In this document: piece by piece, positions 1-3,006 of the stretch
How positions within the stretch are numbered: position 1 is the first letter of the stretch
How the letters are laid out: each line of letters starts with the position of its first letter
Source: Oxalobacteraceae bacterium
GTDB lineage: Bacteria; Pseudomonadota; Gammaproteobacteria; Burkholderiales; Burkholderiaceae_D
DNA: 32,093 bases
NCBI GenBank assembly: GCA_947487325.1
Contig: CANKWG010000003.1
Coordinates: 1 to 32,093 of the forward strand
Direction: 5' to 3'
Notes under the pieces: model-generated
Databases searched by the model: none
What the model was told of the DNA's origin: nothing
What the model saw: the letters and a program-made list of their open reading frames with translations, nothing else
Made by a program: the position numbers and the translations under genes

Positions 1-115
1 AGGGACCGGCCATGTGTTCAATTTAGGTCATGGTATTTCTCAATTTACCCCACCCGACGCTGTAACCGCCATGGTGTCAGCAGTCCACGAGATCAGCCGC
101 CAGTTGCGCGCCTGA
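1..115 (+). CDS. hemE: Uroporphyrinogen decarboxylase, C-terminal end (partial)
   Basis: The window opens inside a reading frame that starts at base 2 and ends with TGA at 113-115. The 37 visible residues contain the motif [12 protein letters not shown], which is the characteristic C-terminal stretch of HemE. HemE decarboxylates uroporphyrinogen III to coproporphyrinogen III, a cytoplasmic step shared by haem and bacteriochlorophyll synthesis. The rest of the gene lies upstream of the window. Its position before priA on the same strand is common in Betaproteobacteria. The motif is short but distinctive. Confidence 0.88.
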
Positions 116-176
116 TCAGGCTCATCTAAAGATCGGGGTGCTGTTGTTGCATGTTTTAGCACCTCGATCCGTCCAG

Positions 177-185
177 TTATGCACA
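177..185 (+). promoter_or_regulatory. DnaA box, exact match
   Basis: TTATGCACA matches the DnaA consensus TTWTNCACA at all nine positions. It is the leftmost of the boxes in the hemE-priA gap. Confidence 0.5.
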
Positions 186-351
186 AGTAAGGCACATACC
201 GACCGAATCAAGTACTTGCACAAACTTATCAATCTCGCGTCTAGGTATGAGAGCCAACCCATTGATTCATTTAAATAAATTAATTCAACGATGACTGTTC
301 GTTGATCGGCGGCTTGATCACAGAAAACAAAGCGCGCTAAACGAGGGCACA

Positions 352-372
352 TTGTTCACAAAGATATCCACA
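352..372 (+). promoter_or_regulatory. Two adjacent near-consensus DnaA boxes
   Basis: TTGTTCACA (352-360) and ATATCCACA (364-372) each differ from TTWTNCACA at one position. They lie in the same orientation with three bases between them. Close spacing of weaker boxes is typical of origins. Confidence 0.4.
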
Positions 373-547
373 GGCAGTTAATAGCCGAAATCAATTTTGG
401 ACACCACAAAGAAGCGCGATTGAGTCAGGCCACGGCATTCACGACAAAATCTTGACGGGTTGATAGGATTTTACCGCTCCAAAGGCGATACAAAACAGTG
501 ATGGGCTTATGCAAAACGCAGGTAACCAAGCATTGGACAACCCACAC

Positions 548-556
548 TTATTCACA
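548..556 (+). promoter_or_regulatory. DnaA box, exact match, beside an A-rich tract
   Basis: TTATTCACA matches the consensus fully. It is followed 24 bases later by a 21-base A/T-rich run (581-601) that would be easy to unwind. Confidence 0.5.
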
Positions 557-720
557 AAAGTAGTCTTGTCAAGATGGCGGAAAAAAAAATCTAAAAATAT
601 TCCCTGGGTCTAACAACAATCGCTAAGTCCTTGATTTTTCATGGGCTTACCGTCTGCTTTCCAACGAGTCATTTTGTTGAACACCGCATGAACTCAGCGC
701 TTTGGCTTGTCAAGACCCAG

Positions 721-755
721 TTACGCACAAAGTTATCCACAGAATTTGTGGATAG
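721..755. promoter_or_regulatory. Cluster of three DnaA boxes, two forming a perfect inverted repeat
   Basis: TTACGCACA (721-729, one mismatch) is followed by TTATCCACA (733-741), the strongest E. coli R1-type box. The opposed copy TGTGGATAG lies at 747-755. The arms TATCCACA and TGTGGATA are perfect 8-bp inverted repeats around a 5-bp spacer, so two DnaA molecules could bind head to head. An AT-rich tract follows at 781-800. Confidence 0.55.
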
Positions 756-966
756 CGAAAAAATGTCTTTTGCGCCCGGGATTTAAATCAATTTTTAAAG
801 CATTACATTAAGTTGGGAAGAGGTTGAACAAAGTCGCATTTTTGGGGCAAGCTAGTAGATCTCAAAGTGCCGTTGGCCACAATCCCAAACTCCCGGTACT
901 ACTTTTTAATCCCAACCGACTGCATTTCTATCAACGCAGTGCTTCTTTAGCTCAAACTCGCTGTCT

Positions 967-3006
967 ATGCCGCCACCCACTCCTCGAATTCTGAAAATGG
1001 CGCTGGACACCCCGCTGGCCATCGAATTTGACTATCGATGGCAGCCAGAGTCCGCCGAAGATCCACCTCCGACCGTGGGCCAGTTGGCCCAAGTGCCATT
1101 CGGACGCAGAGAAGTCATGGGGCTCATTATTGCGATCCATGAGAGCAGTGATTATGCGCCCGAAAAAATTCGTGACATCACCGCAATACGTTACCAACTA
1201 CCTGCCTTGTCGACGCATTGGATCGCCCTGTCACGATTCGCGGCTGAATACTACCAGCGCCCGTTAGGCGAAGTGGTCTTGCCCTGCCTGCCAAAAAATC
1301 TAAGGGCCTTAAAATCTACGGCACTCGACAGCGCATTGAAGAAAGTCACAGCGCCTGCGAGCTTAACGACTTCAGAACCTTCGCTTGTACCCCAACTCAA
1401 CCAAGACCAGCAAGCGGCAGTCGATGAAATCACAGCAGTTAGTAGTTACAGCACGACCTTGCTTTTCGGCGTGACCGGCAGTGGAAAAACCGAAGTCTAT
1501 TTGCGAAGTGCAGAAAAAATTCTTGAGCGCGAACGCCAACAGGGAAGGCGCGCGCAAGTATTGATACTGGTACCCGAAATCAATCTGACGCCACAACTCG
1601 AGAACAGCGTACGGGCGCGCTTTCCCGAACTGAATGTGGTTTCACTGCATAGTCAACTCTCCGAGGGCGAGCGCACCCGTAGTTGGCTATCAGCCCACCT
1701 CGGGAGTGCTGCCATCGTCCTCGGCACTCGCCTTGCCGTGCTCGCCTCCATGCCCGATCTGAAACTGATCGTCGTCGACGAAGAGCATGACCCCTCGTAT
1801 AAACAACAGGAAGGTTTACGTTATTCGGCGCGCGATCTCGCGATTTGGCGCGCGCGCGACTTGAACATTCCGGTCGTCCTCGGGTCAGCAACGCCGTCAA
1901 TGGAGAGCTGGCATCACGCAGAAAGCGGCCGTTATCGAAAACTCGCCCTAACCCAGCGCGCTGCTGCGCAAGCAGTGTTACCCAACATATCGCTGATCGA
2001 CATGGAGCGAATCAAGGCAAGCGAAGGCTTGGCGCCGCCACTCATTGCCGCTATACGCGAGCGATTAGCGCGTGGCGAGCAATCGCTTTTGTTTCTCAAT
2101 CGTCGCGGCTACGCGCCTGTCGTGCATTGTGATGCATGTGGGTGGATCAGCAATTGCCAGCGATGTACCGCATTCATGGTGCTGCACAAACCAGAACGTC
2201 GTTTGCGCTGTCATCACTGCAGTCTTGAGCTCAGGATACCCGCATCTTGTCCCACTTGCGGCAATGTGGATTTGCAGCCGCTAGGACGTGGCACCCAACG
2301 TATTGAAGAATATTTACACACACTGTTCCCTGAAGCGCGCGTGCTTAGAATCGATGCTGACTCCACCAGAAAAAAAGGCAGTGCACAAGCGGCCTTCGAA
2401 ACGGTACATCGCGGTGAAGTCGATATTCTCCTAGGCACGCAAATGGTCGCAAAGGGCCATGACTTCCAGCGCCTGACGCTGGTGGGAGTCATCAATCCAG
2501 ATACCGCCTTGTTTTCGCATGATTACCGGGCCGGCGAGCGTTTGTTTGCGCAGCTCATGCAGGTCGCAGGCAGGGCGGGCAGGGCGGGTCAGATGTCCAA
2601 GAGTGAAGTGCTGGTTCAAACCCGCTACGCGCAGCATCCGCTGTATCGCGCACTGCTAAAGCATGACTTTCCAGGCTTTGCGTCAGCTACTTTGGAAGAG
2701 CGTCGCAGCGCCGGCTTACCACCTTATGTCTTTCAGGCCTTGCTCAGAGCGGAATCAAAAACCTTGACGAATGCTCTGGAATTTTTGCAGCAGGCGCGGG
2801 CGCTATTGCCCCATCCTGGTATTGTCATCAATGACCCAGTGCCCATGACGATGACGCGTGTCGCGGGCGTCGAACGAGCGCAGTTATTGCTGGAGTCGAA
2901 TGCGAGAGCAACCTTGCAGAACTTTCTGAAGCTTTGGGTGCAGGAGCTACGCAAACATCCTAGCCGTCTACGCTGGACGCTCGAAGTCGATCCGATTGAT
3001 ATCTAA
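967..3006 (+). CDS. priA: Primosomal protein N' (replication restart helicase PriA)
   Basis: PriA is a 3'-to-5' superfamily 2 DNA helicase that recognises stalled forks and starts reassembly of the primosome. The 679-aa product has the N-terminal DNA-binding region (about 1-110), Walker A GVTGSGKT at 168-175, the DEEH box at 271-274 and VLGSATPS just after 300. An eight-cysteine zinc region begins near 388 with CDACGW. The C-terminal helicase motifs GTQMVAKGHDF and QVAGRAGRAG are also present. It is somewhat shorter than the E. coli protein (732 aa) but all motifs are there. The start at the first ATG has no visible Shine-Dalgarno sequence; PRILKMALDTP a few residues in is the usual family start, so the N terminus is close to right. 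It follows hemE and the DnaA-box region. Confidence 0.96.
   Translation: MPPPTPRILKMALDTPLAIEFDYRWQPESAEDPPPTVGQLAQVPFGRREVMGLIIAIHESSDYAPEKIRDITAIRYQLPALSTHWIALSRFAAEYYQRPLGEVVLPCLPKNLRALKSTALDSALKKVTAPASLTTSEPSLVPQLNQDQQAAVDEITAVSSYSTTLLFGVTGSGKTEVYLRSAEKILERERQQGRRAQVLILVPEINLTPQLENSVRARFPELNVVSLHSQLSEGERTRSWLSAHLGSAAIVLGTRLAVLASMPDLKLIVVDEEHDPSYKQQEGLRYSARDLAIWRARDLNIPVVLGSATPSMESWHHAESGRYRKLALTQRAAAQAVLPNISLIDMERIKASEGLAPPLIAAIRERLARGEQSLLFLNRRGYAPVVHCDACGWISNCQRCTAFMVLHKPERRLRCHHCSLELRIPASCPTCGNVDLQPLGRGTQRIEEYLHTLFPEARVLRIDADSTRKKGSAQAAFETVHRGEVDILLGTQMVAKGHDFQRLTLVGVINPDTALFSHDYRAGERLFAQLMQVAGRAGRAGQMSKSEVLVQTRYAQHPLYRALLKHDFPGFASATLEERRSAGLPPYVFQALLRAESKTLTNALEFLQQARALLPHPGIVINDPVPMTMTRVAGVERAQLLLESNARATLQNFLKLWVQELRKHPSRLRWTLEVDPIDI

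What the first reader, a model, noticed from the sequence alone, without database searches (positions are those of the whole stretch)
116..966. DnaA-box cluster between hemE and priA: candidate chromosomal origin or DnaA-titration locus
The sequence shows three exact TTWTNCACA boxes, at least five one-mismatch boxes and three AT-rich tracts in an 850-bp gap with no gene. Known origins beside hemE occur in Caulobacter-type alphaproteobacteria, while betaproteobacterial origins are normally annotated next to dnaA. If this is a beta, an origin here would be an unusual placement, or a conserved DnaA reservoir near the origin. That is inference.
Basis: partly seen in the sequence, partly recalled or inferred. 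Interest (0 to 1): 0.7.

Follow-up and report, generated by a model that had tools for sequence, protein, structure and literature searches.

The report
datA-like DnaA control element at priA
The gap in front of the priA gene is not the place where the chromosome starts copying, but a tandem, precisely spaced DnaA-and-IHF docking element laid out like E. coli's datA/DARS replication-timing switches and conserved at the same spot across Burkholderiales and many other Gammaproteobacteria, so origin-timing control of this kind may be far older and wider than E. coli.

Summary
The DnaA-box cluster is real (3 exact boxes, shuffle expectation 0.16). It is not the origin. In closed Oxalobacteraceae genomes where the skew is readable, GC skew changes sign at another locus, which carries DnaA boxes, an AT-rich tract and a DnaA-trio; the same kind of locus lies in this genome (contig C5:22350-22640). 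The hemE-priA gap has no trio in 50 relatives. The gap holds two tandem copies of a fixed module: DnaA box (+), 47/57/68 bp, perfect IHF site (-), 84 bp, box (+), 3 bp AAG, box (+), 5 bp, box (-). Across 44 Burkholderiales genomes, 70 of 70 modules keep these distances to +-2 bp, and the first gap varies by whole helical turns. Genome-wide regex searches find the architecture in 100 of 300 Burkholderiales and 78 of 365 other Gammaproteobacteria, while the reversed pattern finds none. It lies directly upstream of priA in 68 of 80 and 35 of 78 of those tested. E. coli datA fits the same regex, and the box triplet has the spacing seen at E. coli DARS1. Best reading: an origin-proximal, IHF-bridged DnaA-control element, datA-like in build. 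Whether it inactivates or reactivates DnaA, titrates it, or regulates priA is undecided by sequence.

The parts
177..185 (+). Module 1, lone DnaA box TTATGCACA
   Evidence: exact box; conserved place
206..218 (+). extra perfect IHF consensus AATCAAGTACTTG, found in 6 of 50 gaps (this genome, close relatives and one Collimonas)
255..267 (-). Module 1, IHF site CAACCCATTGATT (perfect consensus), 69 bp after the lone box
352..360 (+). Module 1, box B1 TTGTTCACA, 84 bp after IHF
364..372 (+). Module 1, box B2 ATATCCACA, 96 bp after IHF, AAG linker
378..386 (-). Module 1, third-box position, degenerate here (TTAATAGCC)
   Evidence: the (-) box is intact in many relatives
548..556 (+). Module 2, lone DnaA box TTATTCACA
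   Evidence: start of the only datA-pattern hit in the genome
624..636 (-). Module 2, IHF site TAAGTCCTTGATT (perfect consensus), 67 bp after the lone box
721..729 (+). Module 2, box D1 TTACGCACA, 84 bp after IHF
733..741 (+). Module 2, box D2 TTATCCACA, 96 bp after IHF, AAG linker
747..755 (-). Module 2, box D3 CTATCCACA, 110 bp after IHF, 5-bp linker
967..3006 (+). priA, replication restart helicase, the conserved neighbour of the element
   Evidence: TIGR00595 and NF004067; adjacency
1..115 (+). 3' end of hemE (contig starts inside the gene)
   Evidence: reading frame [14 protein letters not shown]... visible; HemE HMM hit in the relative L048

Best explanation
The gap is a non-coding, origin-proximal DnaA-control element made of two tandem copies of one module. 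IHF bound at the central site bends the DNA, so that DnaA on the lone box meets DnaA on the box triplet and a defined DnaA oligomer forms. By analogy with E. coli datA, whose spacing it shares, this oligomer most likely promotes hydrolysis of DnaA-bound ATP, and sequesters DnaA, once the element has been duplicated soon after initiation, so that the origin does not fire twice. Shown here: the architecture, its conservation, its location, and (from relatives) that it is not the origin. Inferred: binding by DnaA and IHF, the looping, and the sign of the effect (inactivation).
For: Perfect IHF sites: 76 in 50 gaps against about 4 expected, nearly all on the minus strand. All 70 modules: IHF to D1 82-85 bp, D1 to D2 12 bp, D3 mostly at 110+-1. 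The lone box to IHF gap clusters at 47/57/68/79 bp, i.e. helical turns (Rayleigh R 0.82 with one value per genus and module). D1, D2 and the AAG linker are conserved (1.6-2.0 bits) while the spacer is not (0.23-0.35 bits), so selection acts on the sites. The regex for this layout matches E. coli datA (L256 2245-2415; 0 in 200 shuffles), whose IHF-to-box-3 gap is also 84 bp and box-2-to-IHF gap 56 bp. Minimal datA needs boxes 2, 3 and 7 in one direction plus one IBS, with optimised intervals (PMC5742627). The regex hits 100 of 300 Burkholderiales and 78 of 365 other Gammaproteobacteria; the reversed control hits 0 of 670. In this genome the only hit is window 548-741. In 4.46 Mb of held sequence a relaxed module search gives hits only at the priA locus, plus one just upstream of hemE in L043. 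In closed genomes the element lies 31-591 kb (0.8-12%) from the LysR/oriC locus.
Against: No binding, footprint or mutant data. The box at datA's box-3 position (D1) is usually one mismatch off, and the strong box sits 12 bp further on; the (-) box also sits elsewhere than in datA, and box 7 could not be placed. The triplet looks more like a DARS core than like datA. The constant link to priA would also fit a promoter role. E. coli datA is at another locus, so common descent is not shown.
Confidence: 0.47

Rival explanations
1. DARS-type element: the same IHF-DnaA complex catalyses ADP release and reactivates DnaA.
For: The triplet D1-D2-D3 (+ 12 + 14 -, weak/strong/weak) has the same spacing and orientation as three boxes at E. 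coli DARS1 read on the reverse strand (TAATACACA-12-TTATCCACA-14-(-)). In DARS2 the IHF site lies 96 bp from box I, exactly as IHF to D2 here.
Against: DARS core box III (10 bp beyond box II) is not conserved here. E. coli DARS2 has no lone box at the place used here. Fis sites were not tested.
Confidence: 0.2
2. Transcriptional control of priA: DnaA and IHF regulate the priA promoter.
For: The element is directly upstream of and co-oriented with priA in 68 of 80 Burkholderiales and 35 of 78 other genomes.
Against: The distance to the priA start varies from 9 to 814 bp in Burkholderiales and 110 to 1427 bp elsewhere. There are one to four tandem copies. No sigma-70 promoter above chance on the priA strand. 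12 of 80 Burkholderiales and 43 of 78 other genomes with the pattern have their hit away from priA, like E. coli datA.
Confidence: 0.2
3. Plain DnaA titration locus: the boxes merely soak up DnaA.
For: High box density near the origin; titration on the E. coli chromosome is supported by PMC12371093.
Against: Titration alone does not explain a perfect IHF site at a fixed helical phase or the invariant intervals.
Confidence: 0.1
4. Chromosomal origin oriC.
For: Cluster of DnaA boxes with AT-rich tracts in an ori-proximal intergenic gap.
Against: The skew changes sign elsewhere: G042 at 2.04 Mb (element at 1.998 Mb), G098 at 345-360 kb (113 kb), G024 near 278 kb (246 kb), G004 between 60 and 85 kb (104 kb). 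All 11 DnaA-trio runs in 4.46 Mb lie beside boxes at other loci and none in 50 hemE-priA gaps. E. coli oriC lacks this layout.
Confidence: 0.03

Closest known systems
E. coli datA (DnaA-ATP hydrolysis locus, near glyV-glyX-glyY and queG)
   Same: DnaA box (+), 56 bp, perfect IHF site (-), 84 bp, DnaA box (+), second box beside it; about 180 bp; matches the same regex
   Different: At the priA locus; tandem copies; first + box weak and followed 12 bp on by a strong + box, then a (-) box at 5 bp; box 7 not identified
E. coli DARS1 / DARS2 (DnaA-reactivating sequences)
   Same: Box triplet spacing 12/14 and orientation as at DARS1; IHF-to-strong-box distance of 96 bp as at DARS2
   Different: Core box III not conserved; extra lone box beyond IHF; Fis sites untested; different locus
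Chromosomal oriC of Oxalobacteraceae (LysR/mmsA locus, this work)
   Same: DnaA boxes, AT-rich, same part of the chromosome
   Different: oriC has a DnaA-trio (TAGTAGTAATAG) beside an AT-rich tract and sits at the skew change; the element has neither
DnaA-box clusters of B. subtilis and Streptomyces that repress initiation (cited in PMC5742627)
   Same: Non-origin box clusters
   Different: Not compared by sequence here

Membership tests
datA | two + oriented DnaA boxes flanking one IHF site at optimised intervals | tested here: met
   regex hit in window 548-741 and in E. coli datA; 84 bp interval shared
datA | strong box 3 at 84 bp with box 4 (-) 12 bp further | tested here: not met
   D1 at 84 bp is weak, the box 12 bp on is +, the (-) box comes at 110 bp
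datA | low-affinity box 7 | tested here: inconclusive
   position of box 7 not given in the text read
datA | IHF-dependent hydrolysis of DnaA-bound ATP | not testable with these tools
   needs biochemistry
DARS | core boxes I-III, box I opposite to II and III, same spacing in DARS1 and DARS2 | tested here: not met
   I and II present (14 bp apart); III not conserved
DARS2 | IHF site at the DARS2 distance from the core | tested here: met
   96 bp in both
DARS2 | Fis sites FBS2-3 | not tested
   no reliable Fis consensus scan made
oriC | at the GC-skew sign change | tested here: not met
   (in relatives; own genome is 239 contigs; G083 inconclusive, G114 noisy)
oriC | DnaA boxes next to an AT-rich DUE with DnaA-trio | tested here: not met
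   0 of 50 gaps have a trio run

The most novel reading that the evidence does not exclude
A DnaA-box/IHF/DnaA-box element upstream of priA is an ancient DnaA-activity switch of the Gammaproteobacteria (betaproteobacteria included), and E. coli datA and the DARS sites are relocated, specialised derivatives of it.
Probability: 0.2. Interest if true: 0.88.

Novelty: new variant of a known kind. Interest (0 to 1): 0.72.

Why it matters
datA and DARS have been worked out in E. coli and close relatives. An element with the same helically phased DnaA-IHF geometry, kept at one gene in a whole order and beyond, would show that this layer of replication timing is not an enterobacterial speciality. It also gives a ready list of sites to delete in tractable species. 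It corrects a tempting mis-annotation too: an origin finder keyed to DnaA boxes would pick this gap, whereas in this family the origin appears to be elsewhere, often not beside dnaA.

Tried and rejected
Origin at hemE-priA: rejected by skew and the absence of a DnaA-trio in relatives. Origin in the dnaA-rpmH gap: only one box there in this genome. RNA gene or riboswitch: no Rfam match. The idea that the class-wide hits are themselves origins: tested against dnaA, only 1 of 76 genomes with a dnaA match (G768) has the hit next to dnaA. Skew in G083 and G114 was too noisy to place an origin alone; G057 lacks the LysR gene. The LysR gene is not always next to the box cluster (G001, G042, G098). 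MG1655 could not be searched whole, so datA was tested in a fetched region. Paper searches found no priA-linked datA/DARS; only open-access papers are covered.

Full report
OBSERVATION. The gap 116-966 lies between the end of hemE and priA. It has three exact TTWTNCACA boxes where shuffles give 0.16, and ten sites at up to one mismatch where shuffles give 2.7. It is gene-free, without Rfam matches, and 43% GC against 55%.

ORGANISM. The window is contig C3 of a 239-contig, 83% complete assembly. The nearest named relative is an Oxalobacteraceae MAG with 97% identical PriA (L048); its gap is 85% identical to this one. The family belongs to Burkholderiales.

NOT THE ORIGIN. The own genome is too fragmented for skew, so closed relatives were sampled. 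In G042 the skew is negative from 1.90 to 2.04 Mb and positive after it; dnaA is at 1.979 Mb and the hemE-priA cluster at 1.998 Mb, both inside the negative arm. In G098 it is mostly negative from 0 to about 350 kb and positive after 360 kb, while dnaA is at 1 kb and the element at 113 kb. In G024 the sign changes near 278 kb (element 246 kb, dnaA 558 kb). In G004, of the window's genus, it changes between 60 and 85 kb (element 104 kb). At or near these changes lies a second box cluster; where the genes were read it is flanked by LysR-type regulators and/or a methylmalonate-semialdehyde dehydrogenase gene. Runs of at least four TA[AG] triplets (DnaA-trio) occur 11 times in 4.46 Mb of held sequence, all within 150 bp of DnaA boxes. 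Where both skew and trio are available (G042, G098, G024) they coincide. None lies in the 50 hemE-priA gaps. The own genome has such a locus at C5:22350-22640, trio TAGTAGTAATAG at C5:22451, 13 kb from dnaA. G083 and G114 skews are too noisy to use alone.

THE MODULE. Boxes in 50 gaps (this one and 49 named relatives) fall into a repeating layout. Perfect IHF consensus sites number 76 where about 4 are expected, nearly all on the minus strand. Every one of 70 modules has a lone + box upstream at gaps clustered at 47, 57, 68 and 79 bp, D1 at 82-85 bp, and D2 12 bp after it; D3 is mostly at 110+-1. Steps of one helical turn in the only variable interval are what a bent, looped protein-DNA complex would require. 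D1, D2 and the AAG linker carry 1.6-2.0 bits per base, the 84-bp spacer 0.35, so the sites and not the gap are under selection. Oxalobacteraceae usually have two modules, Herminiimonas three, G001 four, and Alcaligenaceae, Cupriavidus and Ralstonia one. In this window module 2 is intact and module 1 has weaker triplet boxes.

REACH. The regex box - 45-75 - IHF(-) - 75-105 - box finds one place in this genome, window 548-741. It hits 100 of 300 Burkholderiales genomes and 78 of 365 other Gammaproteobacteria; the reversed pattern hits none of 670. Of 80 hit-bearing Burkholderiales genomes tested, 68 have the hit 9-814 bp upstream of priA in the same direction. Of 78 other genomes, 35 have it 110-1427 bp upstream; chance is about 3 in 10,000 per hit. 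Only one of these non-Burkholderiales hits is next to dnaA. The regex demands perfect sites, so these are lower bounds. A relaxed search of all held sequence returned only priA-locus copies and one just upstream of hemE in L043.

WHAT IT RESEMBLES. E. coli datA fits the same regex: box 2, 56 bp, IHF(-), 84 bp, box 3, 3 bp, a (-) box. The review PMC5742627 states that boxes 2, 3, 7 and the IHF site of datA, their direction and intervals, are needed for DnaA-ATP hydrolysis. The triplet, however, has the 12/14 spacing and orientation of three boxes at DARS1, and D2 lies as far from IHF (96 bp) as box I of DARS2. DARS box III is missing. So it is built like datA and DARS together but passes neither membership test fully. 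E. coli oriC and the E. coli priA upstream region lack the layout.

MECHANISM. Most likely IHF folds the module so that DnaA on the lone box and on the triplet form an oligomer that changes DnaA's nucleotide state. Because the element is origin-proximal (31-591 kb, 0.8-12% of the genome from the LysR/oriC locus in 19 closed genomes) it is duplicated early after initiation, which suits a shut-off device. The sign is inferred. Rivals are reactivation, priA regulation and titration, with the tests that would separate them given above.

LIMITS. The literature searched is open-access only. Gene context of distant hits is known only relative to priA and dnaA. IHF, Hda and Fis genes of this organism were not searched. 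Relatedness of the genomes means the counts are not independent, although they span some 50 families of the order.

Noticed in passing
own genome C5:22350-22640 (L003:6350-6640): Probable true oriC of this organism: DnaA boxes, AT-rich stretch and DnaA-trio TAGTAGTAATAG between two convergent LysR genes next to an mmsA-type gene, 13 kb from dnaA. Equivalent loci sit at the skew change in relatives.
   Followed up: partly
L139:8351-9339 (G001): Four tandem copies of the module upstream of priA, the largest number seen.
   Followed up: no
L043:7245 and 1235: In this genome a module lies just upstream of hemE, and an oriC-like trio run lies about 8 kb upstream of priA.
   Followed up: no
L204:1-1300 (G042) and L117:7634-8503 (G024): oriC loci carry two tandem AT-rich tract plus DnaA-trio units about 420-900 bp apart.
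   Followed up: partly
window 11779-32091: Calvin-cycle genes (RuBisCO large subunit confirmed by HMM) run into a bacteriochlorophyll gene cluster ending in bchL (confirmed by HMM): a phototrophic Oxalobacteraceae. Other gene names in the stretch were not tested.
   Followed up: no
gamma genomes such as G610, G614, G744, G570, G736, G795: The regex often matches twice with ends 12 bp apart, so the tandem + box pair of the triplet is also present outside Burkholderiales.
   Followed up: partly
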